Below are positions 4,151 to 23,698 of a stretch of 64,000 bases of DNA, one piece after another (the stretch's first letter is position 1; every line of letters starts with the position of its first letter). Source of the DNA: Gilvimarinus chinensis DSM 19667 (GTDB lineage Bacteria; Pseudomonadota; Gammaproteobacteria; Pseudomonadales; Cellvibrionaceae); the NCBI RefSeq assembly GCF_000377745.1, contig NZ_KB898707.1:98718-162717 (forward strand). Reading direction: 5' to 3'. A program made the translations under genes and the position numbers. The notes beneath the pieces were generated by a model, which worked only from the letters and a program-made list of their open reading frames with translations, was not told the DNA's origin and made no database searches.

Positions 4151-4206
4151 ATTTTCAGCTTTTCATCTTTGCAACTTGACATTATGGCTTACCTCGGCAA
4201 TAGTTT

Positions 4207-4218
4207 ATTGTATACAAT
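4207..4218. promoter_or_regulatory. Operator palindrome ATTGTATACAAT (site 1)
   Basis: A perfect 12-base palindrome ending 16 bases before the start codon of the halogenase-like gene, after the preceding terminator. Related ATTGT-N2-ACAAT sites lie at 7334, 25335 and 33977. The form resembles operators of GntR-type regulators (UxuR-like, two-base spacer), but the protein that binds it is unknown; the IclR gene at 34097, which has such a site in its own promoter, is one candidate. Confidence 0.65.
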
Positions 4219-4234
4219 AATAAAAAGGTGCCTA

Positions 4235-5767
4235 ATGACTAAGGCCATCACCCAAATCGCTATTCTCGGCGGTGGTACCGCCGGATGGCTAACCGCGGGC
4301 ATTATTGCCAGTGCGCACCAGCCTCGTTTACGCGACGACAGCTTGCGTATTACGCTCTACGAATCGGAGCAAATCCCCCCCATTGGTGTGGGTGAAGGCA
4401 CTTGGCCTACCATGCGCCAAACGTTACAAACCTTAGGTATCAGCGAGTCGGTGTTTTTACGCAAATGCGATGCATCGTTTAAACAGGGCTCTAAATTTGT
4501 TAACTGGCGTTTTGACCAACACCCTCACAGTTACTACCACCCGTTCTCGGTTCCCGAGGGTTACCAGCACCAGCTTAATATGGCTGAACACTGGCTTTTC
4601 CAGCATCAAGATACCGCGAGCTTTTCGCGCTGTTACAGCCCACAAGAGGCTGTCTGCAAGGCGCACTTAGCCCCCAAAGCACTGCAGCACACCGAGCAAC
4701 AATCGGTGCTCAACTACGGTTTTCATTTAGACGCTGGTAAATTTACTCAACTATTGCAAAAACACTGCACGCAAAAATTGCATGTTAAGCATCATTTTTG
4801 TGAAGTCACCGGTGCCACACTGGATAATGACGGTGCCATAGCGGCGTTACAAACCAACACCGGCGAACGTCTAAAAGCAGATTTATACATCGACTGCAGC
4901 GGAATGAAAGCCACCCTACTCGGGCAAGCGTTGGGTGTGCCCTTTAAACCGTTACACTCAGTGTTATTTTGCGATCGGGCACTGGCGACACGCCTACCCT
5001 ACCCCGAACCCAATGCACCCATTGCCTCATGCACCTTAGCCACGGCGCAACAGGCCGGTTGGATTTGGGATATTGGCCTACAAAGCCGACGTGGTGTTGG
5101 TTATGTATATTCTAGCGATTACCAAAGCGACGAACAGGCTCTGCAAACTCTGGCGAGCTATACCAATCAGTCAGCCGCTCACATCGACGTAAAATCTATC
5201 GCGTTTACACCGGGCCACCGTGAAAAATTTTGGCACAAAAACTGTGTTGCAGTGGGGCTTGCGGCGGGCTTTGTCGAGCCGTTAGAGGCCTCCGCCCTGT
5301 TGCTCGTGGAGTTGTCGGCACAATTTATTGCCAACAAATTGCCGCAAACTAACACGCAACTTTCATCCCTAGAGCACATATTCAATGAGCGATTTCTATA
5401 TCGCTGGTCGCGTTTAGTGGACTTTTTGAAACTGCACTATCTGCTTAGCGCTCGTACTAATGATGCTTTTTGGCGCGACAACCGAACCCTCTCCTCAATC
5501 CCAGATTCCCTCACCGACCTACTGAATCTGTGGCAACACACACCCCCTTGGCCACACGATTTTGATAGAACCGGTGAAATATTTCAGGCCTTAAGTTACC
5601 AATATGTCTTGTACGGAATGGGTTTTAATACCGAAATGCCGTTTTCTCCCGAGGCACACAAACAACAATTAGCCGATGCGCTGCTACGGCAAAATATCGA
5701 AGCCAGCCGCCTGTTAACCCAACAACTTCCCAGCAATCGGGAATACCTTAACCACCTGCACCACTAA
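4235..5767 (+). CDS. Flavin-dependent tryptophan halogenase family protein
   Basis: 510 residues from the ATG at 4235, chosen over an upstream TTG because AAAAAGG lies just before it and the flavin-binding G-G-G-T-A-G-W (residues 12-18) then sits at the N terminus as in PrnA-type enzymes. The active-site lysine (K83 in ASFKQG) and glutamate (E348 in GFVEPLEAS) are present. The W-x-W-x-I-P motif is changed: W276-I-W278-D-I280-G281, glycine replacing proline. Members of this family sit beside TonB receptors in many marine polysaccharide loci, where their substrate is not known; true tryptophan halogenation is doubtful. It needs reduced flavin from a partner reductase, which is not in the window. 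It is transcribed with the sulfatase 32 bases downstream, probably under the palindrome at 4207. Confidence 0.85.
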
Positions 5768-10592: not shown

Positions 10593-11576
10593 TTACCAAG
10601 CCAACACCCAAGGCACCAGAAAAAAACCGCCACCGAGTAACAGCACCCACAACACCCCCGCCAGCAAAAAAGGCTTACCGCCACCATTTACCAACAGCGC
10701 CCAACGCGTTTTTAACCCCAGCGCCACCATAGCCAAAGCAAGAGCCGCTTGTGAGAGATAGCCAAGCCCTAGCAATAGACTCTCGGGAATTGACAAGACA
10801 CTGCGGGCGCAGGCCGCGGCGATAAAGCCCAGCACAAACCAGGGGATGGTCAGTGCGCGTTGCCCGCTTGGCGCATGGCCCTGCTGACGCTGCCAGTAAA
10901 GTCCCAACACAAACACCACAGGGGCCAGCAGCATAACCCGGGCGAGTTTGGCCACCAGTGCGCCCTGCAATGCCTGGGGGTCGATAGACTGACCAGCCGC
11001 CACTGCTTGGGCTACCTCATGCACCGTAGCGCCAATGTAGATGCCATAATCAACACTGTCCACCTCGATATATTGAAACAGCAGTGGGTAACTGAACATT
11101 GCCAGCGAGCCAAAAGTGACTACGGTGGCCACCGCCAGACTGATGTCTCGCTCGCGAGCTTTAACCACCGGCTCAACCGCCATAATGGCCGAGGCACCAC
11201 AGACGGCACTGCCCACACTGGTTAGCAGCGCCAGAGGTGCTGACATTTTTAACCAACGCACACCCAAATAAACACCCACACACAACACGCTGACAACCAC
11301 CATCAAATCCAGCGCCAATACCTGCCATCCGGCTTCTAGCAACTGTTGCAGGCTCAGACTAAAGCCCAATAAGACAACACCAAGGCGCAACAGCTTTTGC
11401 TGACAAAACCTCAACGTGGGTTGGCTTGTAGCTCGCTCGGCAATACGGGTGGTATTACCGAGTAGCATCCCCAGTAGAATCGCCACCGGCAACGCGCCCA
11501 ACCCCACCGTTGCAAACGCCGGTAGCTGCGCAATCAGTAACGCCAGGCACGCCAATACAAATAAAATCAACCACAT
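10593..11576 (-). CDS. yeiH: YeiH/UPF0324 family membrane protein (putative sulfate exporter family)
   Basis: 327 residues, almost entirely hydrophobic with about ten predicted membrane spans. The phrases GLGALPVAILLGMLLGN near the N terminus, SAVCGASAIMA in the middle and IGATVHEVAQAVAAG mark the UPF0324/YeiH family, which databases label a putative sulfate exporter although the transport activity is poorly documented. A very strong ribosome site (GGAGG, six bases before the ATG) sets the start. It is divergent from a LysR-type gene, as yeiH is from yeiE in enterics. Among many sulfatases it could relieve sulfate or sulfite load, which is inference only. Confidence 0.85.
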   Translation of the reverse strand: MWLILFVLACLALLIAQLPAFATVGLGALPVAILLGMLLGNTTRIAERATSQPTLRFCQQKLLRLGVVLLGFSLSLQQLLEAGWQVLALDLMVVVSVLCVGVYLGVRWLKMSAPLALLTSVGSAVCGASAIMAVEPVVKARERDISLAVATVVTFGSLAMFSYPLLFQYIEVDSVDYGIYIGATVHEVAQAVAAGQSIDPQALQGALVAKLARVMLLAPVVFVLGLYWQRQQGHAPSGQRALTIPWFVLGFIAAACARSVLSIPESLLLGLGYLSQAALALAMVALGLKTRWALLVNGGGKPFLLAGVLWVLLLGGGFFLVPWVLAW

Positions 11577-11620
11577 ACATCACCTCCGATTGGCAGGCAG
11601 TGTACGCAACGGAATTATTT

Positions 11621-11651
11621 AAGTATATTGGATATTAATTAATTGATACTT
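11621..11651. promoter_or_regulatory. Inverted repeat in divergent yeiH-LysR promoter
   Basis: AAGTAT (11621-11626) and ATACTT (11646-11651) frame an AT-rich core containing TTAATTAATT, 12 bases before the LysR start. Symmetry and place suit a LysR-type autoregulatory operator. Confidence 0.45.
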
Positions 11652-11662
11652 CGATTTTACTT

Positions 11663-12556
11663 ATGAATATAACCCTGCGACAAATGGCCATTTTTGAAGC
11701 CACGGCGCGACTCGCCAAGCTAAGTCTCGCCGCTGAGGAACAGGCCATTAGCCAAAGTGCCGCCAGCCAGGCGATTAAAGAAATGGAGGGCCAGCTCGAG
11801 TATCGGCTGTTTCAACGCCAAGGCCGCACGCTAACTCTTAGCCCAGAGGGTGAGGCATTACTGCCGCGCATACGGCAGATACTGGAGCTCAGTCGTGATA
11901 TCACCCGGCGCGACAGCCAAGCGGTGGCGGGCCATATGACCTTAGCGGCCAGCGTCACCATTGCCAGCTATTTAGCGCCCAGCCTAATCGGCCGAATGCA
12001 AAGCACCTACCCCGAGGTGCAGGTAAAACTCAGCATCGAAAACAGCGAAAACGTGCTCGACAGTGTGGCCAAAGGCCGGGCGCTGCTGGGGATGATCGAA
12101 GGGCCAGCCACACACCCAGAGCTAACCATTACGCCCTGGAAAACCGACCAACTGGTGATATTTTGCCCGGCTACACACCCCTTGGCACAAAAGCCCAAGG
12201 TTACGTTTAATGCACTGTTGCGCGAGCGCTGGATTGTGCGCGAGACAGGCTCGGGCACGCGCTCAATTTTGGACGCCGAGTTACAGAGATTGGGCATAAA
12301 CATTGATATTGCTCAGGCTCTTAACCGACAGGAGGCGATTAAACAATGCGTACTTGCGGGTTTAGGGCTTGGTTGTTTGTCACATTTATCCATTGCAAGA
12401 GAACTGGCCAGCGGGGAACTGGTTGCGCTTAATACGCCGCTTAATTTAAGTCGCCGTTTTAGCTGGGTGGCGGCGCCGGAGCGCGCCAACCACCCTTTGC
12501 ATCAAGCGTTTATAACCTTGTGCCAGCAAACCGATGCGCTGGGCACAGCTTACTAG
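11663..12556 (+). CDS. LysR-type transcriptional regulator (YeiE-like)
   Basis: 297 residues. Residues about 1-60 are the winged helix-turn-helix (RQMAIFEATARLAKLSLAAE, then ISQSAASQAIKEME and LFQRQGRTLTLSPEG), and about 90-290 the two-lobed effector domain with the phrase RETGSGTR typical of the CysB/CbbR/YeiE branch. It is divergent from yeiH across an 86-base gap holding an inverted repeat, so control of yeiH is the natural inference; the effector may be a sulfur compound. Its TAG stop shares the CTAG at 12553-12556 with the stop of the convergent GH50 gene, so the two coding regions overlap by four bases with no room for a terminator. Confidence 0.88.
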   Translation: MNITLRQMAIFEATARLAKLSLAAEEQAISQSAASQAIKEMEGQLEYRLFQRQGRTLTLSPEGEALLPRIRQILELSRDITRRDSQAVAGHMTLAASVTIASYLAPSLIGRMQSTYPEVQVKLSIENSENVLDSVAKGRALLGMIEGPATHPELTITPWKTDQLVIFCPATHPLAQKPKVTFNALLRERWIVRETGSGTRSILDAELQRLGINIDIAQALNRQEAIKQCVLAGLGLGCLSHLSIARELASGELVALNTPLNLSRRFSWVAAPERANHPLHQAFITLCQQTDALGTAY

Positions 12557-14841
12557 TCGTAACGACGTGTATAGAGCGATTGATTCACTGCGCGGGCGGC
12601 ATCAACTAAAGGCTTGTAAGGGATGTCCGTAACACTGACAAAACCTACATTATAATTTTCACCATCGTAGGCACGGCCAGTTAAAGGCGAGTCGATATAC
12701 TGAAACCAGTGCACGCCCACAAAGTAAGGGTTGTCGATCACGCTATTAACATACTCCTGGTATTTAACGCCGCGGTCGCGCTGAGATTCGGCATGGATTA
12801 AACCCGGGTTTAACAAGCCTGAATCCAGCGCGCCGTTGTGAAACTCGCCAATAATACTGGGTATATCCAGCTCGGCTAAAAAGTCCCAAAACACATCGCT
12901 TACGGCTTCGCGGTAATAGTTGTAGCTCATTACATCAACATAGGGCGCGGCGGCTTGTCGCACCTCGGGGGTCATGGCCCAATCGGCAAAGCGCGCCCCC
13001 AAATACAAATGATTGGGCATTAACTCGTCCATGGCCGCATCGACAATGCGGAAGTATTCGGCGGTATAAAGCTCGAGCATTGCGGCCATGTCAGTAATCG
13101 CCGCATCGGTATAGTGGTTAAGTTCAATGCCCTCTTCCAGGGTTTGCCAACTCGCCGCTTGAATGTTCCAGGCGTTGTTGATCGCCTCAATATCGCCATA
13201 ATGCTGTTTAAGGTAAGCGACAAAAGCCGCTTTGGTAGGGCTGTCACTTGCCTTACGCGTCAACGTATTCAAAACAACGCCATACTGAGACTCGACCGAT
13301 CCCATAATGCCCCAGCTTTTTTCGTTATCGATAAACACACCCACACACCAAGGACTGTTGGCGACCTCCTCGCTAATCTTTTGCACCGTGGCGTAGGCCC
13401 GCTCTGCGAATACCGGATCAAACGGGTCAGGCAATGCACCCCAGTAATCGTTACCGCTGGAGACGGTTTTAAAATCGCCAATAATCCAGCCGTTGGCAAA
13501 GTAAGGATAGTTTTTCATATCGTAAAACGCGGGGTCCACCCAGTTGCCAAACGAGGTGAAGCCCCAATTTTCCATGCGTTTAACAGTGGTATCGCGCCAT
13601 TTCTGCATCAGCGTGGCAGTATCGTGGGTGCGGTATTTACGGGCCAGATTGGCACGATAAAAACTGTAGGTTTCACCGCGCTCCATTGCCCCCGAATGCA
13701 CCTCACGCCGGTAGCCAAAGTGTTTCCCGAGCGGCTCTTGGTAATCGGGCAACCAGGTAAACATATCGGTGCGCAGTTCCGAGCTAACGTGACGGCTCGC
13801 TAAAGCCTGATCGGGAACCCGGTTTAACCCCAAAGAATCTTCCGGGGTAAAGTCATTACTGCTGCGTTCGGGGATAAGCTTGTGGTCAAAATCGTAACCC
13901 GTCATGGTCGAGGTATTGGCCATGCGCACATTGGCGATACCATTTGAGAAAAACAAATAACCCTCTGGGTCCACCAGACTCCATTTCCCTTGATACTTTT
14001 CCGTGCGATAAAAACCGGTGGCCTCTAACTTAGGCCCGTCGCGCCAGCCGTGATAACGCGAGCGGTCGGCCAGCAGACCGCTTTGTAGCTGTTGCTGTTC
14101 GGCGTCCGAGACGCGACGTAGCTGATCCACTGAATCAATTTTTTGCGCAAAGTCCATTTTGGCATTTTGGCCAAAGGAGTCTACCAGGCCTTTTAGGTAA
14201 TCATCTTTAAATTCACGGGGCTCTACTACTGTTATGTTATCGACAATAAGTGTTTTATCGCGCAGTGCGCCGCGCACATCAAACCGAATGCCGGTAATCG
14301 CCGAGGTATCCAATTGTTTTTTCCCGCCGCGCCAAATCAGCGGCTGATAGGGATTATCCCAGCTCTCGGGGTTGGAACGAATACCCGTCTCAGTGGCAAG
14401 CTCGGGCACGTCGATATCAATAGCATAGCGCTGGCTCGATATCGCCGGCACCACAAAGCTGCGCATTTGAAAATCGCCACTTTTGTCACTGGTGCTCACG
14501 TACATACTCACCGATTCGTCCGTTGGGTTGGCGATATCCAGCGTTAACGCAAGTGTCTTAAAGTCGCTAAAATCCCAGGGTTTATCCGGCTGAATAGTGA
14601 AACCTGAAATATGATTGGTAGCGGAATACAAGTCAATTTGAACCGCGCCCCCGTCAAGCTCAGCGTAGCTTACCGATGCTGCCAAAGGTGATATTTGTTT
14701 GATATCAGCTTTCTCGGAAAAATCCATCAGCCCTTTTTGTTTGGGTGAATCTTCGCTGAGATGACTGCAGGCGGTGATTAGCAACGATGCTACAAATAGA
14801 TTCGCCCAAGTAGTTACACTAGCTCTTCTTGTAAGTTTCAT
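12553..14841 (-). CDS. GH50 beta-agarase, lipoprotein
   Basis: 762 residues from the ATG at 14841. An ATG at 14881-14883, directly after the stop of the FecR gene, is an alternative adding 14 residues; the shorter form gives a normal lipoprotein signal (MKLTRR, then LLITAC). Residues about 50-230 are a beta-sandwich like the N-terminal CBM-like domain of GH50 agarases; the rest is an (alpha/beta)8 barrel. Candidate acid/base E507 lies in FIDNEKSWG and nucleophile E666 in IIGEFHNGALD; the closing HWFQYIDSPLTGR and DGENYNVGF are GH50 hallmarks. Such enzymes release neoagarobiose from the non-reducing end of agarose chains. It is the last gene of the operon that carries the sigma/anti-sigma pair. 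The other GH50 here is at 36960. Confidence 0.92.
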   Translation of the reverse strand: MKLTRRASVTTWANLFVASLLITACSHLSEDSPKQKGLMDFSEKADIKQISPLAASVSYAELDGGAVQIDLYSATNHISGFTIQPDKPWDFSDFKTLALTLDIANPTDESVSMYVSTSDKSGDFQMRSFVVPAISSQRYAIDIDVPELATETGIRSNPESWDNPYQPLIWRGGKKQLDTSAITGIRFDVRGALRDKTLIVDNITVVEPREFKDDYLKGLVDSFGQNAKMDFAQKIDSVDQLRRVSDAEQQQLQSGLLADRSRYHGWRDGPKLEATGFYRTEKYQGKWSLVDPEGYLFFSNGIANVRMANTSTMTGYDFDHKLIPERSSNDFTPEDSLGLNRVPDQALASRHVSSELRTDMFTWLPDYQEPLGKHFGYRREVHSGAMERGETYSFYRANLARKYRTHDTATLMQKWRDTTVKRMENWGFTSFGNWVDPAFYDMKNYPYFANGWIIGDFKTVSSGNDYWGALPDPFDPVFAERAYATVQKISEEVANSPWCVGVFIDNEKSWGIMGSVESQYGVVLNTLTRKASDSPTKAAFVAYLKQHYGDIEAINNAWNIQAASWQTLEEGIELNHYTDAAITDMAAMLELYTAEYFRIVDAAMDELMPNHLYLGARFADWAMTPEVRQAAAPYVDVMSYNYYREAVSDVFWDFLAELDIPSIIGEFHNGALDSGLLNPGLIHAESQRDRGVKYQEYVNSVIDNPYFVGVHWFQYIDSPLTGRAYDGENYNVGFVSVTDIPYKPLVDAARAVNQSLYTRRYD

Positions 14842-14883: not shown

Positions 14884-16422
14884 TCAATGCGTCAGGGAAT
14901 TTGTACGCATCAGCTTATTAATGTCCTGCTGGGTTAAGGCAGTATCAAAAAGGTAAACCTCATCGACGCCGCCGCGAAAAAAACGATTGGTTTTATGGCT
15001 GTTGTTTGGGTCGTTAAAGGCGAGGTTGCGCCCCATCATCAAGGGTTTGGATTGCGGATGGTTTAGCTCGGTAGAAACGCGCGCGATAGATTTGCCATAA
15101 CTGCGCTCTAGCTCACCATCGATATATATCAATACATGGGTCGACAAGTCGGCTCTATCGCCACCAAACAACACAATGGCCACGTGGTGCCATTGGTTGT
15201 CGCGCAAATCGGTGGTGCCGACGATTTCCGCCTCGTTGGTGCCAACCCGTATACGCCCCAGCGGCCCACTGACATTCAACGGGTTTATTGAAATTTGCCA
15301 GGCAGATAGCTTATCGGCCAAGCCCCAACTGAGAATGCCAAACCCCTGATGGGGGGCAAAGTCTTGGGGCACTTTCACCCAAAAAGCTACCGTGCGCGGT
15401 TTATTGCCCCCAATGCCCGGAAACTCGGTATCCAACCATTGATCGGCTCCGTTAAACCATACCGCCTCACCAAAGGCGCCTTCAATTAACGCAGGTGGTG
15501 CGTTGTCGCCTTGCAAGGTTTGCGCTTGAGCGATAAAGCATTGTTGTCCTATTCCTGGGCCGGCGCAGTTAAACGTCGCGCTTTGATCAAGGCCTGCATC
15601 ATCAAAAGACCAGTGCAAATACTGTGGTTGCTGATAGCGCCGCCCCGGTAACGTGCGCATAAAACGATTGGGCTGACTTTGGATAACCGCCATTTGCTGA
15701 TTTGCATCAAAGCTTCGGGCATCGTCTTGATAGAGGTTTTCATACTCTTGCGAGCCCGGCGTTTTTACTTTGACTTCGCCCTCAAGCACATGCACCTGAG
15801 AGGCACCTGTGTCGTCCACCGCCACACCAAATTCGGTACCTAAATCGATAATATTGGCACTCGGAGTGTCCACCGCAAAGCCGGTCGCCTCGGGCGGCAC
15901 TTTGGCAACCAAGACGCCTTGCCTCAGTACTAGGCGATCAGCGTTTTCAAACATCAGCCGCGCCGGTGATTCCAACAGCAGTACCACGCCGTTAATCAGA
16001 GTTATTTCGGCGTAGCCTGCGTCCAGATAAAACTCGCCTGCCGAAATACTTTGGCCCGGCGTGTAATCCATCCCGGTACCCGCCAATTTGCTGATACTGC
16101 CCACACTGACGGATGTAGTTAAGGCATAAAAAACCGCTACCACACAGACTAACAAGCTAGCGCAAGCGGTTGCCCACCAACAGTAACGGCGGCGAGAAGC
16201 GCTCGCAGGCTCGGCCTGTACGCTTTGTAATACTGCCGCAGTAAAGGCATCGCCAGAGCTTGCCTGGTTGGCATAAGCCAGTAAGCGATGCATGTCCCGC
16301 TGCTGCGCGAGTTGTGTTTTAAACTCGGGATCGTTTTGCACCCGCTCAATAAGCGCTTGCCGGGCGTTTTTATCGCCGGCTAGGTAACGCTCAATCAGTT
16401 GAGAATCGGTCGGGCTTATCAT
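14884..16422 (-). CDS. FecR-type anti-sigma factor with C-terminal LamG/concanavalin-like lectin domain
   Basis: 512 residues from the ATG at 16422, five bases after the sigma-factor stop; a GTG at 16452 is a less likely start inside the sigma gene. Residues 1-80 are hydrophilic and presumably cytoplasmic, able to hold the sigma factor. One membrane span (about 81-102, WWATACASLLVCVVAVFYA) follows. Residues about 115-235 show the FecR pattern (AEITLINGVVLLLESPARL, then DLGTEFGVAV and VHVLEGEVKV). Residues about 255-500 form a LamG-like jelly roll (LHWSFDD, TVAFWVKVP, NQWHHVAIVL, GGVDEVYLFD). This FecR-LamG layout is familiar from Planctomycetes and Verrucomicrobia but unusual in a gammaproteobacterial agar operon. 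The lectin domain could sense a galactan in the periplasm; that is inference. Confidence 0.85.
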   Translation of the reverse strand: MISPTDSQLIERYLAGDKNARQALIERVQNDPEFKTQLAQQRDMHRLLAYANQASSGDAFTAAVLQSVQAEPASASRRRYCWWATACASLLVCVVAVFYALTTSVSVGSISKLAGTGMDYTPGQSISAGEFYLDAGYAEITLINGVVLLLESPARLMFENADRLVLRQGVLVAKVPPEATGFAVDTPSANIIDLGTEFGVAVDDTGASQVHVLEGEVKVKTPGSQEYENLYQDDARSFDANQQMAVIQSQPNRFMRTLPGRRYQQPQYLHWSFDDAGLDQSATFNCAGPGIGQQCFIAQAQTLQGDNAPPALIEGAFGEAVWFNGADQWLDTEFPGIGGNKPRTVAFWVKVPQDFAPHQGFGILSWGLADKLSAWQISINPLNVSGPLGRIRVGTNEAEIVGTTDLRDNQWHHVAIVLFGGDRADLSTHVLIYIDGELERSYGKSIARVSTELNHPQSKPLMMGRNLAFNDPNNSHKTNRFFRGGVDEVYLFDTALTQQDINKLMRTNSLTH

Positions 16423-16426
16423 GGTT

Positions 16427-16996
16427 TCAGTAGCCTCGGTTAATACAGTCACGCAGTTTTTTGCGGTAGCGGTTGAGTCGCATCGTGAGCGTTGAGTGCG
16501 CCACGCCCATAGCCTCGCGCAACTCCTGCAAGCTATAACCTTCGCGGTAATAAAGCCTGAGTGTTTTTTGCGCTGGGTGATCCAGTTTAAGCAGGCATTG
16601 CCGCAACAAACTTAACTCGGCCTCTTGCTCGTCCGGGTGCTGTTGCTGTTGTTCATCCAGAAGTTGCGCCAGTAAATCTGGCTCGGTGGGTGCCAACCTG
16701 GCCTGTTTGCGGTGGTGATTGCGCAAAAGGTTTTGCGCAATAGACAACACCCAACCACTAAACGCGGCGTCATCGTGCAAAGTGGCCAACTTTTGCCAAG
16801 CCAGTACAAAGCTTTCCTGGGCTAAATCATCCACATCGGCGCTGTAATCTGTGCGCTTAGCCAAATAACTGCGCACCCGGCTTTGCTGCTGGCTAACCAA
16901 ATATTCAAACGCCTTGATGTCACCGCCACGGGCACGTGCCACCCAGCGGCAAAGCCGCTGGGCATCGTTGGCATTATGCTCCGTGGCAAGCTTCAT
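16427..16996 (-). CDS. ECF-type RNA polymerase sigma factor
   Basis: 189 residues. Region 2 (about residues 20-90) includes DDLAQESFVLAWQKLA, the core and -10 binding part; region 4 (about 130-186) includes LRLYYREGYSLQELREAMGVAHSTLTMRLNR, a helix-turn-helix for -35 recognition. The style, with a loop rich in glutamine between the regions, resembles the Rhodopirellula/Verrucomicrobium sigma group. The ATG overlaps the stop of the FAD oxidoreductase gene (TAATG) and the FecR gene follows directly, so the pair is translated with the operon. It most likely drives an agar-responsive promoter, possibly that of its own operon; the target sequence is not known. Confidence 0.9.
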   Translation of the reverse strand: MKLATEHNANDAQRLCRWVARARGGDIKAFEYLVSQQQSRVRSYLAKRTDYSADVDDLAQESFVLAWQKLATLHDDAAFSGWVLSIAQNLLRNHHRKQARLAPTEPDLLAQLLDEQQQQHPDEQEAELSLLRQCLLKLDHPAQKTLRLYYREGYSLQELREAMGVAHSTLTMRLNRYRKKLRDCINRGY

Positions 16997-19305
16997 TATT
17001 TGGCCTGTGATGACGGGGCGCTGTGAATATAGACTTCAAACAACCCCGCCGGCACCTCGGCTGAGGGGTGCTCAAGCTCCAGCGTTAAGGTGCGGGTAGT
17101 CACTGGCTGATCAAAACGCACAAGGTTAACGCTTTGATGATTATCCGAGCACTGATAAATCAACCGGCCTTGATCGTCCAACAACCGATACTGACGTACA
17201 CAGAAAGGCATAATATTTTCTGGGTGCTCCATTAAAACCGTTTCTAATGCGTGGTCGTAATCGCAATCAAAAAACAGTCGCACGGCTTGAATACTTACCG
17301 GATCATGCCAGCGCCAATGCACCTGAGGTTTCACATCATCAGGCGAGGCGAACCAGGCATTGGTGCCCAGCCAAGGCCGGGTAAAGCCGTTGCTGAGATT
17401 CTCAGAGTGATATAACTCTAGCGGTTGGGCAAAGTGCAATGCCAGATTTTTACCGTCTGGGCGACGCTCGGGCGTCCAGATTTCAAATTCGTCGATACCG
17501 CTACCGGCGGGTGCCTCTTGCTTGCCAGTGTTAGAAACCGCTTTATGCTCTTTATGCATCACCGTGGCGATACCGCTTAAACGTTGCTCCGTGGTGGCCA
17601 ATTGGACTTTGTCATTCGCCATAAAACAGATAAAACCATACTGCTGGGTCGAGGCAGCAGCGTTAAAATCGAGCGTGATCTCTTGCTCGCCCGTCGCTAA
17701 TGACAAGGTTTGGCTTGCTAACGTGGTTTCCGGTGTATAGTTTTGCGCTTTTTCACTAACGCGCATTTGCACGGTTAGCTCGGTGGCGGTTTCGGCTTTA
17801 ACCCGTAATCGCGCTACCGGAAATTCGCGCTCGCTCAATGGCAGCATTTGTGCCAGTGACTGACTAAGCGGCGTCCAGCCGGTCGCCGCCCCCAAAGTTA
17901 ACCCCTCATAGGTGCTGCTGGCACTGACATCAGCACGACGACTTAGGCATTCCTCTTTATTAAGCGCTATTCCGGGCAGACCGTGACCGGTAAGATTCAA
18001 GCGTTGTTGCAATTGCGTCATGGTGGGCGACGCCAGCAACGCTTTAGGGTCACACTGGTTTCCCACACTCATGGCGGCAGCCTGTCCCATGGCCTGTCCA
18101 CCGTGGGCACAGGTAATCATCACCCGAGTTGAACCAAAGGCAATATGGCTAGCGCTGATGATACGCCCGGCTAGTAAAAGGTTGTCGATATCGCGGCTTA
18201 AAAAGCTGCGATACGGAATTTGATAAATACCTTTAGCGTGGTACTGCGAGCAAGGCGGCTTATCGCTGTAAACTCCCTCGGCCGGGTGAAGATCAATAGC
18301 CCAGCCACCAAAGGATATAGCGTCGTCAAACTCGCGCTGTTCGACAATATCTTGCTGTCTCAACATATACTCGCCTTCAAAACGGCGGCTTTCGCGTTTA
18401 CCGGGTATGGTACCCACCCACTCGAGGGTTAAGTTGTCGACATCGTCATAGCGGCCACTGTTTTTAATATAGTCCCAAATGCCGTAGACGATTTTCCAAA
18501 GCTCCCATTTAATGTCTTCTGTCTCATAAACGGTGTCTTTGATGCCGCCGTACTCCAGCCACCAAAATTTGCAGCCCGAGTCGCCGCTTTGAATATTTTT
18601 ACTGCGCGGTAAAGCGCCTATTTCTTCGTGGCTATAGGCAAAGTCCGGCGCCTGATAGCGAACCGGATGATTCATCCGCTTGCTGTAAAAAAATAGTGAG
18701 TGTCCCAAAAGCTCGCGGTTGGCCTCGGAAGGGGCCATACCCTCACCAAATTCGTCGCGTGCTTCGGCGCCGATACGAAAACTCGCCCCGGCGTTAAACG
18801 CCAGCAGACCGTCGCCTGTGGCGTCGATAAACACCGGTGCCGTTAACCGGTAATGAACACTGTTCTGGCTGCAAAAACCATCGCAGGATTCAATACGCCG
18901 CGATCCACTTTTGTTGACCTGATACACCGCGGTATTGAGTAGCAAGGTAATGTTGCGCTCGGCCACGACTTTGTCCAGTAGTACGGCGTCAAAAATCAGC
19001 GGATTACCCATAGGGTTTCGGTAGGTATTTTCCAGCATGATTTCGTCGATCAACCCGCCCTCGCGTGAGTAACGATTATTGTTGCCCATATGGGAGGTTG
19101 CACCCAGCGCCCACAACCGCACCTCACTGGAGGCATTGCCGCCCAGCACGGGGCGATCTTGCACTAAAATCACGCGAGCACCAGCGCGCGCGGCACTGAT
19201 GGCAGCGCACACTCCGGCCAAACCGCCCCCGGCAACGACTACATCGGCGCTCAAATCGGTGCGTTTATTGGCGCGCGCTTGCTCACTGAATTGCTCACGA
19301 ATCAT
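16996..19305 (-). CDS. FAD-dependent oxidoreductase (PF12831-like) with C-terminal beta domains
   Basis: 769 residues, no signal peptide. The N terminus has a Rossmann fold with G26-G-G-L-A-G31 and an acidic end of strand two near D50; GGNASSEVRLW and the pair RYSREGGLIDE are typical of the FAD_oxidored family. A second dinucleotide-contact segment lies near LLAGRIISASHIAFGSTRVM. Beyond about residue 440 the sequence turns beta-rich with no recognised family; the closing 120 residues (HWRWHDPVSIQAVRLFFDCDY) look like a discoidin-type sandwich. The start overlaps the GH117 stop by ATGA. Homologues occur in sugar-degradation loci but their substrate is unknown. Within an agar operon it may oxidise an anhydrogalactose-containing sugar or a derivative; this is inference. 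Family membership is confident. Confidence 0.8.
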   Translation of the reverse strand: MIREQFSEQARANKRTDLSADVVVAGGGLAGVCAAISAARAGARVILVQDRPVLGGNASSEVRLWALGATSHMGNNNRYSREGGLIDEIMLENTYRNPMGNPLIFDAVLLDKVVAERNITLLLNTAVYQVNKSGSRRIESCDGFCSQNSVHYRLTAPVFIDATGDGLLAFNAGASFRIGAEARDEFGEGMAPSEANRELLGHSLFFYSKRMNHPVRYQAPDFAYSHEEIGALPRSKNIQSGDSGCKFWWLEYGGIKDTVYETEDIKWELWKIVYGIWDYIKNSGRYDDVDNLTLEWVGTIPGKRESRRFEGEYMLRQQDIVEQREFDDAISFGGWAIDLHPAEGVYSDKPPCSQYHAKGIYQIPYRSFLSRDIDNLLLAGRIISASHIAFGSTRVMITCAHGGQAMGQAAAMSVGNQCDPKALLASPTMTQLQQRLNLTGHGLPGIALNKEECLSRRADVSASSTYEGLTLGAATGWTPLSQSLAQMLPLSEREFPVARLRVKAETATELTVQMRVSEKAQNYTPETTLASQTLSLATGEQEITLDFNAAASTQQYGFICFMANDKVQLATTEQRLSGIATVMHKEHKAVSNTGKQEAPAGSGIDEFEIWTPERRPDGKNLALHFAQPLELYHSENLSNGFTRPWLGTNAWFASPDDVKPQVHWRWHDPVSIQAVRLFFDCDYDHALETVLMEHPENIMPFCVRQYRLLDDQGRLIYQCSDNHQSVNLVRFDQPVTTRTLTLELEHPSAEVPAGLFEVYIHSAPSSQAK

Positions 19306-20537
19306 TGTTTATCTCTTGTGTGGTTAGCAAGCGCATGCTGTCTTGCTTGTTGAGCTCGTGCTTTTTTTATCTCTTCAGGTAAGCTTTGAGAAAAGCAAAC
19401 ATCCGGATGCCATTTAATTTCAGTATTGTTGGCAATATTCGAGCGCGGCATCTGGTTGCGTAAATCACAGTCAAACCGCCCTAGAAAACTGAATTTAGTG
19501 TCGGGTTTATCGTGATCGCAAAAATGCGATAAACCCCAGGTAAAACCCTGCCCTTCACCTTCGCTGTGGAAAACATCAGGTATATACGGGCCAGCGCCTA
19601 CCGGCATAAGTGCGGTGACCGCTGCAATATCGAAATTGATACCGTCGGGTGAGTACTGAATGGTGTTGCTTTCGATACCATTGCGTATCGCAAAAGCGGC
19701 AACGCCTTTGCCAAAACGAAACACCGTGGTTTCATGACAGGAATTTAACACCGGATTAAAAGGGTGTTTCACAAAAGGACCCAAAGGGTCGTCGGCAATC
19801 GCCACTCCATTGCCAACCAAGTAGTCCGGCCGATCACCAAATGCGGCCTTGTAATAAATATAAATTTTGTTATCGATGACTATAGGATAAGGTCCGTGAA
19901 TGGAAAATTGATCCCACTCACCCGGCGCACCATTGGGAATAATCGCGTCGCCACAAGGTGTCCAGGGGCCATCGGGCGAGTCGGCTACCGATACGCTTAC
20001 CGGGCAGTGGTCTCCCTTTAAACCACTGGGCTCTTCAAACGCCTGATAGTACAAATAGTACCTGCCCTTCCAGACCAGAATATCGGGCGTACACACCGAG
20101 CGCCATCCCAACTTAGGTTTGTCGGGGCGACCTACCGCTAGGCCTTTCTCCTGCCAATGAAAACCGTCCTCTGAAGTGGCGTACCAAATATCACTTAAGT
20201 CCCAGTCCGTGGACGGGATGGTCTCGGTGCAAGCTTGTGCCCCGCGCGGTGCAGAGACAGTATCGCGCTTGGTGTACCAAATATAATATTTTCCGTTCTC
20301 GCAGATTATTTTGGATGGATCGCGCCGCGAGACACGGCCATCTTCTGCACCATAATCAAACCCGCTGATACGCGTATATTTAAAGCTGGTGAATAAGGGG
20401 TTGTCTTCCGGGCGCGGTGTTATATAGTTGCTGTACAACCGCTCCATCGCTTTACTTAAGGGTCGATCGGGCCGAGTTGCCGGAATATCCCAAGGGAAAG
20501 CCCCATACTCAGTATCTTGATGGGTATCGCTCATCAC
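19302..20537 (-). CDS. GH117 alpha-1,3-L-neoagarooligosaccharide hydrolase
   Basis: 411 residues with no signal peptide, so cytoplasmic. The five-bladed propeller pattern shows repeated Y-Y-I/L-W/Y-Y strands, and the segment DYGAEDGRVSRRDPSKI (about 60-76) together with DIWYATSEDG, RSVCTPDI and QFSIHGPYPI matches neoagarobiose hydrolases such as Zobellia AhgA and the Saccharophagus enzyme. The product cleaves neoagarobiose and short neoagarooligosaccharides to release 3,6-anhydro-L-galactose from the non-reducing end. It follows the symporter gene with an ATGA overlap, which suits uptake of neoagarobiose followed by hydrolysis. The released aldehyde could feed the AldA-like dehydrogenase at 28222 or the FAD oxidoreductase encoded next. 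The identification is strong. Confidence 0.93.
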   Translation of the reverse strand: MMSDTHQDTEYGAFPWDIPATRPDRPLSKAMERLYSNYITPRPEDNPLFTSFKYTRISGFDYGAEDGRVSRRDPSKIICENGKYYIWYTKRDTVSAPRGAQACTETIPSTDWDLSDIWYATSEDGFHWQEKGLAVGRPDKPKLGWRSVCTPDILVWKGRYYLYYQAFEEPSGLKGDHCPVSVSVADSPDGPWTPCGDAIIPNGAPGEWDQFSIHGPYPIVIDNKIYIYYKAAFGDRPDYLVGNGVAIADDPLGPFVKHPFNPVLNSCHETTVFRFGKGVAAFAIRNGIESNTIQYSPDGINFDIAAVTALMPVGAGPYIPDVFHSEGEGQGFTWGLSHFCDHDKPDTKFSFLGRFDCDLRNQMPRSNIANNTEIKWHPDVCFSQSLPEEIKKARAQQARQHALANHTRDKQ

Positions 20538-22213
20538 TTACTCCAACCATTTTTGTTTTGTCGCTGTCGAAAATACATGGCCGCGCCCAGCGCCATAATT
20601 AAGCCCGCTATGGCAGCCACTAAACTTGCGCTAGCCTCGGCTATCACCGATAGCACCAGCATAATTAGGCCAATGGTAAAGACACCGACGGCGATCACTC
20701 GCAAGCCGTGCCGATTGTCAGCCTGATACTGGGACGGAGACACACTGGCGGCGGCCTCATGTTTGGCCTGCTCCAGCACCTTGTACTTTCGGTATTGAAG
20801 CGCCTCAAGGCCGCGATGTCGAGCCATTAACTCGCCAATCGCAAGCAGCAACACCGGTAAACCAATACCCAACAGGGTTTCTTGTTCACGGTTAAGGCTA
20901 ACGCCCCAAACTGCGGGAACCACAAATTTGAAAAAGGCATTGATCGCCAAGGTAAACAGCGAAACACGCAATAACATCGTCCCGGTCTGGTACTTTGAAA
21001 ATAACGCCCACACCGGTGGCAGAAACAGCGCGCCACCGGTCATGGCGGCTACAGTAAATACAAAGGAAACGATACCTCCCATTTTGGGAATAAATAATGC
21101 CACCGCAATGGTCACTAAACCCAAGGCTACCGTGGCTAAGCGCCCTACCCTCACCAGCGACCGATCACTGGCGTCGGGTTTGAGATTTTTATAAATATCA
21201 TTGGCAATAACTCCGGAGAACAAGTTAATAGCCGTGTTAACCGAGCTGGATGTTGCAAAGATCATTGCCCCGAGCATTAAGCCCAGCATGCCTACCGGAA
21301 GTATTTCTTTACTGATCAGAAGGTAAGCTCCCTCATCAGCCAAACCGGCCAAATCCGGGTTGAGAACCCGATACACCATAGGCGGTAACATCCAGACAAT
21401 CGGGCTAATGAAATACAAGCCGCCAAACAACAACCCTACTTTTTTAGCATCAGCCGGTGTAGCCACCGAGGTATAGCGCTGCACGTAAGGCCAGTTGCCG
21501 GCAATAAAAAACAGGTTGTAGAGCCCAAAAACCACAATAAACGTCCAGGTATAATCACCACTAACTGGAGCGAATAACTCCGACGGAGCCTGGGCGAAAA
21601 AACCACTAACACCCCCGACCCGGTCAAGCGCCAGCGGCACCACAATGATCACCGCCGCGGTTAACACCACAAACTGCAAAATATCGGTGACAATCACCGC
21701 CCACAACCCGCCCACGGCGGTATAAGCCAGAATCATCAGCCCCAAAATGGCAATGCTCACCGCCAGGGGGATACCGGTACTCACCTCAACAATCTTAGCA
21801 ACGGGATATAAAAACGCACCGGTAGAAAAACTGCCTATCAGTAACAAAATGTAGGTGTAGGTTTTTTGTACCCGCGCGCCCAAACGGTCGCGAATATACT
21901 CGGAGGCCGTTAGCGCTTTAGTACGATTCCAACGCGGTGCTATAAACAAACCCACCAGGATGCCAGCTATCGCCATGGTCCACTGAATCGTCATGGCAAC
22001 AAAACCCTGGCTATAGGCAATAGAGCCCCAGGTCACAAAGGTGCCGGATGAGAAAAAACTCATAAACAGAGATAAACCACTCATCCACCAGGGCAAAGCG
22101 CCACCGGCGGCGTAAAAGCTGTTCATGCTTTTACCAGAGCGCGAAAAGCTCAGACCACAAGCCAATACCAGCAAAGTGAAGACCAAAATAACGACACTAT
22201 CGATTACATTCAT
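20534..22213 (-). CDS. Sodium:solute symporter family (SSS) transporter
   Basis: 559 residues with about 13-14 hydrophobic spans. The N-terminal phrases FYAAGGALPWWMSGLSLF and the following helices with ALTASEYIRDRLG are typical of SSS sugar carriers (SGLT-like). It should use the sodium gradient of seawater to import a sugar over the inner membrane. It lies 62 bases after the GH16 gene and overlaps GH117 by four bases, so neoagarobiose or another small agar oligosaccharide is the likely cargo (inference). The last 100 residues include a charged loop and two extra helices. Confidence 0.9.
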   Translation of the reverse strand: MNVIDSVVILVFTLLVLACGLSFSRSGKSMNSFYAAGGALPWWMSGLSLFMSFFSSGTFVTWGSIAYSQGFVAMTIQWTMAIAGILVGLFIAPRWNRTKALTASEYIRDRLGARVQKTYTYILLLIGSFSTGAFLYPVAKIVEVSTGIPLAVSIAILGLMILAYTAVGGLWAVIVTDILQFVVLTAAVIIVVPLALDRVGGVSGFFAQAPSELFAPVSGDYTWTFIVVFGLYNLFFIAGNWPYVQRYTSVATPADAKKVGLLFGGLYFISPIVWMLPPMVYRVLNPDLAGLADEGAYLLISKEILPVGMLGLMLGAMIFATSSSVNTAINLFSGVIANDIYKNLKPDASDRSLVRVGRLATVALGLVTIAVALFIPKMGGIVSFVFTVAAMTGGALFLPPVWALFSKYQTGTMLLRVSLFTLAINAFFKFVVPAVWGVSLNREQETLLGIGLPVLLLAIGELMARHRGLEALQYRKYKVLEQAKHEAAASVSPSQYQADNRHGLRVIAVGVFTIGLIMLVLSVIAEASASLVAAIAGLIMALGAAMYFRQRQNKNGWSK

Positions 22214-22275: not shown

Positions 22276-23484
22276 TTACTGCTTGGTGTAATAGCGAACC
22301 CAATCCACTTTCATACTGGTTCCGTCAATGGCGTCCGTGACAGGACCTGCGATATCGGCCTTTAAAATAGCCAGGCTAAATAAGATAGTGGTATCGCTAA
22401 AGCAAACGTCGTTACGCATCTGGTGATACAACTCGCCATCTAGGTAAAAGCGAAAGTAGTCTTCATCCCACTCAAGCCCGTAGGTATGCCATTGTGCGGA
22501 GTAGTCGGCTACATGGGCTGCATCGTATTGCGCGACCTGCACCCAATCATCACCATCGTAGTACTCAATGACATAGTCACTAATCAGGTTACGGTACTTG
22601 CCCTCTGAAGCGCCAAACTCTTGCAGCCAACCGTTGCTAAACTCTATGGCCGATACCTGCTGCGGTTTATCCCAATGCAACTCCAGCCATTTTTCACCGT
22701 GTTTTTGTGAGACCCAACGGGTATCCGCTTTGCCATCGATGGCGAACTTTTCTTTTGAGGGAAGCTTCGAGAATACGCCATTGGTGGTGATGTTCGCCGC
22801 CGTCGCCGCATTCTCGCCGCTGTCGTTCAGAACCCGAAATTCGGCGATATGAATTGAAGCAGGGTTATTCGATCGCAGGCGAATTTTCTGCGTAGAGACC
22901 GCTTCTTCAAGTGTTACATGATGCTCAGGATCACCATGCAGGGTATGGTGCAATTGGTTATCTGAGTGGGAGATACGCCCGTCTGGCAAGGTGTACTTAT
23001 CCGTCCAATTGTGTACATTGGTGTTTATAATATTGGGGTAATGCCCTTCGTTGATATCAATTTCGCAGGCTTTTTCGCCTTCTGGCGTGCCTTGCTTGGG
23101 CCACAACCAAAATGAGTTGTTGGTGCCGTAAGCACCGGCGTATTTCATTTTGGCCTCATAGTATCCGTAACCAAATTCTTTTTTGCTCCATATATTGCCA
23201 GTGGTCCAATCCTGCCCACCTCGGGATTCTTTTCTCGCTTTTAGAAGTAAAACTCCATCTTCGATAACCGCGTTTTCTCGCCAACGACTGCTGAGCACCC
23301 ATTCATTCTCCGTGGGACCATTTTGGCTGATCCAATTTTCCGTTAACTGGTCATCGGTGTAGTTGAAGTCATCCGACCAGCTCAGCTGATATTTCGATAG
23401 ATCAATGCTATTTTTAATTTCGGATGCGTTTGATGCAACCGGAATACTCATCAGCACGAAAGTCAACATCATTTTTATATTCAT
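22276..23484 (-). CDS. GH16-fold hydrolase interrupted by a discoidin (CBM32-like) domain
   Basis: 402 residues. Signal peptide about 1-20 (VASNA). GH16 begins at SWSDDFNY (35-42) and has the catalytic E141-I-D143-I-N-E146 core. After VHNWTDKYTLPDGR the fold is broken: residues about 184-325 read as an F5/8 type C domain (KIRLRSNNPASIHIAEFRVLND, ADTRWVS, WLELHWDKPQQVSAIEFSNG, YVIEYYDGDDWVQV). GH16 then resumes with WHTYGLEWDEDYFRFYLDG (332-350) and ends VDWVRYYTKQ. All GH16 elements on both sides are intact, so this is an insertion into a loop rather than a fusion error. It heads the seven-gene operon. Subfamily (agarase, porphyranase or carrageenase) cannot be settled by eye. Confidence 0.82.
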   Translation of the reverse strand: MNIKMMLTFVLMSIPVASNASEIKNSIDLSKYQLSWSDDFNYTDDQLTENWISQNGPTENEWVLSSRWRENAVIEDGVLLLKARKESRGGQDWTTGNIWSKKEFGYGYYEAKMKYAGAYGTNNSFWLWPKQGTPEGEKACEIDINEGHYPNIINTNVHNWTDKYTLPDGRISHSDNQLHHTLHGDPEHHVTLEEAVSTQKIRLRSNNPASIHIAEFRVLNDSGENAATAANITTNGVFSKLPSKEKFAIDGKADTRWVSQKHGEKWLELHWDKPQQVSAIEFSNGWLQEFGASEGKYRNLISDYVIEYYDGDDWVQVAQYDAAHVADYSAQWHTYGLEWDEDYFRFYLDGELYHQMRNDVCFSDTTILFSLAILKADIAGPVTDAIDGTSMKVDWVRYYTKQ

Positions 23485-23698
23485 TATGTTCCCCTAGCAT
23501 TAGATTTTTGAATACCTGATATATCTTTAGGTGTTTTCAAGCCACCTATATGACACATTTATTTTTCTTTAATCTAAAAATCTATACTTGTATAAGTGGG
23601 GCAGCGAGGAATGATTTGATACGAGGAAGATATCTAAGGAAATATTGATATCATGAGTCCACGCGACCGCCGTCGCGTAACTATTTTCAACGATCCAA

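What the first reader, a model, noticed from the sequence alone, without database searches (positions are those of the whole stretch)
14884..16996. ECF sigma factor with a lectin-domain anti-sigma factor embedded in an agarase operon
Seen: sigma gene and a FecR gene whose protein has one membrane span and a C-terminal LamG jelly roll, coupled by TAATG and a five-base gap to the FAD oxidoreductase, GH117, symporter and GH50 genes. Known: FecR-LamG with this style of sigma factor is common in Planctomycetes/Verrucomicrobia, and clostridial RsgI anti-sigma factors carry carbohydrate-binding modules as polysaccharide sensors. Inference: this is a lectin-based sensor that frees the sigma factor on binding an agar fragment, without the usual signalling TonB receptor, perhaps acquired from another phylum.
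Basis: partly seen in the sequence, partly recalled or inferred. Interest (0 to 1): 0.85.

Follow-up and report, generated by a model that had tools for sequence, protein, structure and literature searches.

The report
Lectin-tipped anti-sigma switch for agar genes
Agar-eating marine bacteria carry a transcription switch, a sigma factor held by a membrane protein tipped with a lectin-like domain, that sits inside the agar-digestion operon and seems to turn on agar genes through its own promoter signal; the sugar binding itself has not been tested.

Summary
In detail: an ECF sigma gene (16427-16996, -) and a one-span FecR protein with a C-terminal LamG domain (14884-16422, -) lie in a GH16-symporter-GH117-oxidoreductase-sigma-FecR-GH50 operon of a Gilvimarinus genome. 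New evidence points to a dedicated agar regulator. (1) Of 144 family genomes 10 have FecR-LamG, all among the 11 with GH117. (2) An element, GTGTCA-N13-15-AACA(C/A) or close variants, precedes 16 of 19 chosen operon heads, whether GH16, TonB receptor, GH50 or sigma comes first, in two bacterial families. (3) A second, fucosidase-linked pair has a different element before both sigma and fucosidase. (4) The periplasmic beta domain matches FecR-family anti-sigmas and keeps the Gly-Thr bond that self-cleaves in E. coli FecR, but LamG stands where receptor-docking STN would be; the genome's only STN hit is secretin-like. (5) LamG is far better conserved between families (51%) than the anti-sigma domain (26%). 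Best reading: a periplasmic lectin senses agar oligosaccharides and triggers release of sigma. Sensing and release are inferred, not shown. Acquisition from Planctomycetes/Verrucomicrobia fits the FecR tree; the sigma tree is undecided. New variant of a known kind.

The parts
16427..16996 (-). ECF sigma factor, TIGR02989-like (Rhodopirellula/Verrucomicrobium family)
   Evidence: Pfam and NCBIfam; solved ECF sigmas as relatives
14884..16422 (-). FecR-LamG transmembrane anti-sigma factor, 512 aa (ATG start)
16216..16413 (-). Four-helix cytoplasmic anti-sigma domain (residues 4-69)
   Evidence: AlphaFold helices; best sequence hits are the anti-sigmas RsiW, the AlgU regulator and RseA, weak, E 0.022, 0.67 and 0.96
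16117..16182 (-). Single transmembrane helix (residues 81-102)
15685..16107 (-). FecR periplasmic beta domain (residues 106-246)
   Evidence: Foldseek: the four PDB hits at E<=0.001 are three BDI_1681 anti-sigma chains and PupR 6ovk
15835..15840 (-). Gly195-Thr196 codons, aligned with the self-cleaving Gly181-Thr182 of E. coli FecR
   Evidence: invariant in 29 of 29 rows
14902..15621 (-). LamG/concanavalin-type domain, proposed sensor (residues 268-507)
   Evidence: Pfam, profile against PDB, Foldseek to AbnA domain 4, TMt 0.72
23531..23556 (-). Candidate sigma promoter GTGTCA-N15-AACAC upstream of GH16
22276..23484 (-). GH16 glycoside hydrolase, first gene of the operon
   Evidence: Pfam
20534..22213 (-). 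Sodium:solute symporter (SSF)
   Evidence: Pfam
19302..20537 (-). GH117-type alpha-(3,6-anhydro)-L-galactosidase (family number recalled)
16996..19305 (-). FAD-dependent oxidoreductase
   Evidence: Pfam
12553..14841 (-). GH50-type beta-agarase with Agarase_CBM (family number recalled)

Best explanation
An autoregulated agar switch. The ECF sigma is held at the inner membrane by the four-helix cytoplasmic domain of the FecR-LamG protein. The periplasmic LamG domain binds an oligosaccharide released from agar. Binding alters the adjoining FecR beta domain, which probably carries a self-cleaved Gly195-Thr196 bond, and leads to proteolysis of the anti-sigma. Freed sigma transcribes from GTGTCA-N15-AACA(C/A)-type promoters ahead of the agarase operon (including its own gene) and a second GH50. 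Shown here by computation: architecture, conservation, promoter distribution, co-occurrence with GH117, absence of a signalling receptor. Inferred: that sigma reads this promoter, the ligand, self-cleavage, proteolysis.
For: Promoter: 16 of 19 chosen heads carry the element, against a mean of 0.02 (maximum 1) in 300 sets of dinucleotide shuffles; 9 of 244 other ORF upstreams carry it, 6 of these being further agar heads. It follows whichever gene is first: GH16, TonB receptor, GH50 or sigma. In the window genome TGTGTCA-N13-16-ACAC occurs at 7 distinct places; 3 are intergenic, 2 of them before agarase units. Fucosidase-linked pairs have a different element, GAAA(C/T)(A/G)-N14-GACA, before both sigma and GH29 in 3 genomes (6 of 7 upstreams). 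Co-occurrence: 10 of 11 GH117 genomes against 0 of 133 others (Fisher p 1.4e-14, not corrected for kinship); within the genus 4 of 8 genomes have both genes and 4 neither. Structure: FecR-family fold and four helices in the anti-sigma part. LamG is 51% identical between the two families and the beta domain 48%, against 26% for the anti-sigma domain; LamG is 18% identical between agar and fucosidase-linked types. No signalling receptor.
Against: No expression, binding or proteolysis data. LamG_3 is a broad fold; its PDB matches include glycan-binding proteins (AbnA, sialidases, pentraxins; binding recalled) but also pappalysin. 3 of 19 heads lack the element (G067 sigma, Gayadomonas GH50, Agaribacter), 4 of 19 with the pattern. 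The motif was first seen by eye in part of the same data, and the pattern was adjusted later. Total numbers of sites per genome are only a little higher with the pair than without (mean 4.0 in nine genomes against 2.8 in nine). One GH117 genome (G028) has no such FecR. In Cellvibrionaceae the element is partly palindromic and could be another regulator's site. A paper seen in passages calls the FoxR Gly-Thr residues non-conserved (PMC7186176), and another says their loss keeps about 70% of signalling (PMC9249621).
Confidence: 0.6

Rival explanations
1. LamG binds a protein partner rather than sugar, for example the operon's TonB receptor, GH50 or another envelope protein, and that partner relays the signal.
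For: FecR-type anti-sigmas normally take their signal from a protein; a TonB receptor ORF lies just upstream of GH16 in 3 of 4 close relatives; LamG folds also bind proteins (recalled).
Against: The two such receptors scanned carry no STN domain. In the window and in three Catenovulum loci the gene upstream of GH16 is something else. LamG resembles a module of a glycan-degrading enzyme.
Confidence: 0.17
2. The pair answers general envelope or cell-wall stress during growth on agar; LamG anchors the protein to the envelope.
For: Many ECF pairs sense envelope stress (established knowledge); related pairs also lie beside non-CAZyme genes in Planctomycetes/Verrucomicrobia.
Against: Presence tracks GH117, and of the upstreams examined those with the element are nearly all agar-linked.
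Confidence: 0.11
3. The shared element is the site of an ordinary DNA-binding regulator, and the sigma pair is a passenger.
For: In Cellvibrionaceae the element is partly symmetrical (GTGT...ACAC); an AraC-type gene with the element lies nearby in one genome.
Against: In Catenovulum agarivorans and C. maritimum the right half is AACAA, losing symmetry, while the spacing stays 15; the fucosidase-linked pair has a different, non-palindromic element with fixed spacing before sigma and GH29.
Confidence: 0.08

Closest known systems
FecI-FecR cell-surface signalling (FecR, FoxR, PupR)
   Same: ECF sigma plus single-span anti-sigma; FecR beta domain; aligned Gly-Thr bond
   Different: LamG where STN, the receptor-docking domain, would be; no STN-bearing TonB receptor found in the genome; regulon is agar breakdown, not iron
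Planctomycetes/Verrucomicrobia sigma (TIGR02989) with FecR-LamG
   Same: Sigma subfamily, FecR-LamG architecture and adjacent genes
   Different: There the neighbours scanned at four loci include DUF1549/DUF1553 cytochrome proteins and in one a DUF1501 protein; here the pair is inside an agarase operon
Clostridial SigI-RsgI
   Same: Transmembrane anti-sigma with an outer carbohydrate-binding-type module, tied to polysaccharide enzymes (PMC12203970, passages)
   Different: Different sigma group, no RsgI domain match, different periplasmic domain
RsiV of Bacillus
   Same: Anti-sigma that binds its ligand directly (PMC4183432, title and start of abstract in a listing)
   Different: Ligand is lysozyme; sensor domain not compared here

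Membership tests
ECF sigma factors | Regions 2 and 4 only, ECF-type | tested here: met
   Pfam Sigma70_r2 and Sigma70_ECF over cut-off; region 4 models match under cut-off
TIGR02989 Sig-70_gvs1 | Score over curated cut-off 124.55 | tested here: not met
   117.6 bits, its best family; of 10 other sigmas given, 7 exceed the cut-off and 3 (L014, L016, L021) do not
FecR family (PF04773) | FecR domain over cut-off and fold of known members | tested here: met
   35.8 against 24 bits; 4m0h/4m0n and 6ovk matches
TonB-dependent cell-surface signalling | C-terminal STN in the anti-sigma and an STN-bearing TonB receptor | tested here: not met
   LamG in place of STN; one STN hit in the genome, in a secretin-like ORF
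Self-cleaving FecR-type anti-sigmas | Cleavage at the Gly-Thr bond | not testable with these tools
   Bond conserved in 29 of 29 rows; cleavage itself not shown
Class I anti-sigma domain | Four-helix domain resembling RsiW/RseA | tested here: inconclusive
   Four helices predicted; sequence hits weak, best E 0.022
LamG/concanavalin superfamily | Profile and fold match | tested here: met
Glycan-binding modules | Binds a carbohydrate | not testable with these tools
   Only fold similarity to modules such as AbnA domain 4
RsgI | RsgI domain and SigI partner | tested here: not met
   No RsgI family among Pfam hits of the window protein or among the families listed for 30 aligned members; sigma is ECF

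The most novel reading that the evidence does not exclude
FecR-LamG/ECF pairs are a general class of direct glycan-sensing sigma switches, born in Planctomycetes/Verrucomicrobia by swapping the receptor-docking domain for a lectin and exported at least twice to marine Gammaproteobacteria, each pair with its own lectin, promoter code and target sugar (agar, fucose-containing glycan).
Probability: 0.42. Interest if true: 0.8.

Novelty: new variant of a known kind. Interest (0 to 1): 0.64.

Why it matters
Six Planctomycetes/Verrucomicrobia genomes gave 5 to 22 FecR-LamG-type matches each (partial matches included; genomes picked because a scan had hit them), and I found no described function for such pairs in the searches made. 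This locus gives a tractable case with a clear substrate, a candidate promoter and a predicted regulon, in a genus of which several strains are sequenced, so that a lectin-gated sigma factor can be tested directly. It would also give Gram-negative bacteria a way to sense a polysaccharide without a signalling TonB receptor.

Tried and rejected
A class-wide draw of 369 gammaproteobacteria found only the window's own genome for both genes: the pair is rare there, but this adds no test of co-occurrence. DNA search of plasmids found nothing; protein search found Catenovulum adriaticum and, over 30% of the query, a Singulisphaera plasmid. In C. adriaticum the element lies 49 bases before GH16, a near copy of the C. 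sediminis site, and a second match lies about 390 bases before a sulfatase gene. The strict Catenovulum form AGTGTCA-N14-AAACAA gave 5 hits in 4 of 6 genomes: 3 are GH16 heads, 2 fall in ORFs; the reversed control gave 3. Classical TonB signalling was rejected for lack of STN. A single clade of all gammaproteobacterial pairs is rejected by the FecR tree (AU p 4e-7) but not by the sigma tree (p 0.41); the group was named after the trees were seen, long branches are present, and the root is not inferred. The Nif11 match at the N-terminus (20.5 bits, under cut-off) was set aside as chance.

Rows dropped before the promoter count: six further agar heads (L012 receptor; L063, L064, L022, L026 and L028 GH16), near copies or close orthologues of counted ones; all six carry the element and turned up in the control set, so with them it is 22 of 25. 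The pattern differs from that (spacing narrowed, second half loosened); with the earlier one G089 GH16 is a miss too, 15 of 19. The start codons of the receptor genes are not certain: in G007 the mechanical start lies inside the element, and in G026 the frame opens 2 bases before it, with the next in-frame start 12 bases after it; the G026 start used was a guess. The fucosidase-linked element was fitted to the six sites it is counted on.

Full report
What is there. On the minus strand of a Gilvimarinus genome (G000; three same-genus genomes match named Gilvimarinus contigs by length and place) the order is GH16, sodium symporter, GH117, FAD oxidoreductase, ECF sigma, FecR-LamG, GH50. The sigma is nearest to TIGR02989, the Rhodopirellula/Verrucomicrobium family, at 117.6 bits against a cut-off of 124.55. 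The anti-sigma has four cytoplasmic helices, one membrane helix, a FecR beta domain and a LamG domain. It is the only FecR-family match in the genome at E<=0.001. The GH16 has no solved relative at E<=1e-20, so agar as its substrate rests on its neighbours.

Conservation of the arrangement. The seven genes keep their order in the four other genomes with a close full-length match in the first draw of 58: Gilvimarinus agarilyticus, G. polysaccharolyticus, Gilvimarinus sp. 2_MG-2023 and Marinimicrobium agarilyticum (names). A genome-contig scan gave 28 loci: these four, seven Alteromonadaceae loci (five Catenovulum, Gayadomonas, Agaribacter), and 17 more distant ones, 15 of them Planctomycetes/Verrucomicrobia, one Colwellia and one second Gayadomonas locus. 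In five of the seven Alteromonadaceae loci the order GH16-symporter-GH117-oxidoreductase-sigma-FecR holds; Gayadomonas has GH16-sigma-FecR-GH50, and Agaribacter has a lactonase-like gene inserted before sigma. In five further genomes of the window's family the sigma-FecR-GH50 trio is kept, and in two of them sigma heads its own unit.

Co-occurrence. Of 144 genomes of the family, 10 have the FecR-LamG gene at E<=1e-20 and 11 have GH117 at E<=1e-50; all 10 are among the 11, and the eleventh (G028) has GH117 only. The ten fall in 5 of 32 genera and are related, so the Fisher p of 1.4e-14 is only a guide; but the pattern also holds inside the genus, where four genomes have both genes and four have neither.

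Promoter. A shared element was seen by eye and then tested. GTGTC(A/G)-N13-15 followed by AACA(C/A) or (C/G)ACAC stands before 16 of 19 chosen operon heads; in 300 sets of dinucleotide shuffles the mean was 0.02 and the maximum 1. Of 244 other ORF upstreams in the same loci 9 match: six are further agar heads, two are GH2-like genes beside agar loci (labelled by 21 and 23% blastp identity only), one is an AraC-type regulator. Sites met only after the GTGTCA form was set, such as the Marinimicrobium receptor, the second GH50 of the window genome and two separate Catenovulum GH50 genes, agree. In the window genome TGTGTCA-N13-16-ACAC occurs at 7 distinct places (9 rows), 4 of them inside ORFs; the three intergenic ones are the operon, the second GH50 (a beta-agarase) and a palindrome by a transporter gene. 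The reversed control pattern gave 4 rows. Nine genomes with the pair have a mean of 4.0 rows and nine without it 2.8, so the evidence is position, not number.

A second system. G. polysaccharolyticus, another genus of the family (G060) and a Colwellia carry a divergent sigma/FecR-LamG pair beside a GH29-type fucosidase. There a different element, GAAA(C/T)(A/G)-N14-GACA, precedes both sigma and the fucosidase; with the Gayadomonas relative, which lies beside other genes and lacks it, this is 6 of 7 upstreams, the pattern having been fitted to these six. Genome-wide GAAACA-N13-CGACA has 3 hits in G006 and 4 in G060, two in each being these sites; the reversed control has 3 and 5. Two pairs with two promoter codes and two target enzymes argue that each pair drives its neighbours.

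Mechanism. The beta domain's four PDB matches at E<=0.001 are all anti-sigma proteins, BDI_1681 and PupR. PupR consists of an anti-sigma domain, a membrane helix, a juxta-membrane beta domain and an STN domain (PMC7186176, passages); here LamG stands where STN would be. The Gly-Thr bond that self-cleaves in E. coli FecR (Gly181-Thr182, PMC9249621, passages) aligns with Gly195-Thr196 (hhalign probability 74%, E 2.8e-5; numbering), and both residues are invariant in 29 of 29 sequences. Such cleavage would leave the LamG part held without a covalent link, as in the two-domain FoxR (PMC11637429, passages). This is inference; that literature also says cleavage is not essential in FoxR and calls its residues non-conserved. 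The genome has one STN match at E<=0.001, in a 713-residue ORF that looks like a secretin (label from recalled features, not family-scanned). Receptor ORFs lie upstream of GH16 in three of four close relatives; the two scanned have plug and barrel domains and no STN.

Sensor. Between the two bacterial families (54 pairs) LamG is 51% identical, the short linker before it 52%, the beta domain 48%, the membrane helix 20% and the anti-sigma domain 26%; agar and fucosidase-linked types share 18% in LamG and 34% in the beta domain. Conserved ligand or partner recognition within the agar type is the simplest reading. The nearest single-domain structure is domain 4 of the arabinanase AbnA (TMt 0.72). 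No binding was tested.

Origin. In the FecR tree the agar type (15 rows, 100/99) and the fucosidase-linked type (4 rows, 100/99) lie apart among Planctomycetes/Verrucomicrobia, and one clade of both is rejected (p 4e-7); the sigma tree does not reject it (p 0.41) and holds the agar type together only weakly (86/68). Six Planctomycetes/Verrucomicrobia genomes hold 5 to 22 matches each, partial ones included; six agar-linked Alteromonadaceae hold 1 to 3; all twelve were chosen because the scan had hit them. Transfer into Gammaproteobacteria is likely but its direction is not proved.

Print. Searches of the open library for ECF, FecR and LamG together, for agarase with sigma and anti-sigma, and for related terms gave no description of such a system (listings and starts of abstracts only). 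Many subscription papers are not held, and the one look-up for the main ECF reclassification failed.

Odds.

Noticed in passing
L030:2404-9599 (Gayadomonas joobiniege): A second sigma/FecR-LamG pair lies directly after a planctomycete-type PSCyt1/DUF1592 protein and a DUF1552 protein, as if a whole cassette had moved into a gammaproteobacterium.
   Followed up: partly
L015:819-4588, L061:8797-12646, L035:7402-11341: Sigma/FecR-LamG pairs beside a GH29-type fucosidase with their own promoter element.
   Followed up: yes
L036, L037, L042, L043: In these four Planctomycetes/Verrucomicrobia loci the pair is followed by a PSCyt1/DUF1549/DUF1553 protein, and in L043 by a DUF1501 protein.
   Followed up: partly
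window 4169-5767 (+), near 64-2046: A tryptophan-halogenase-like gene close to a TonB receptor barrel and a sulfatase.
   Followed up: no
window 36960-39167 (+): Another protein with Agarase_CBM; the exact element TGTGTCA-N12-18-ACAC is found only once in the window, before GH16, not here.
   Followed up: no
window 10593-12556: YeiH-type transporter and a YeiE-like LysR regulator between the agar operon and a ricin-B lectin gene.
   Followed up: no
G000:C2:182010-182037 (L069): Near-perfect palindrome containing TGTGTCA just before a predicted transporter gene; perhaps a different regulator's site.
   Followed up: no
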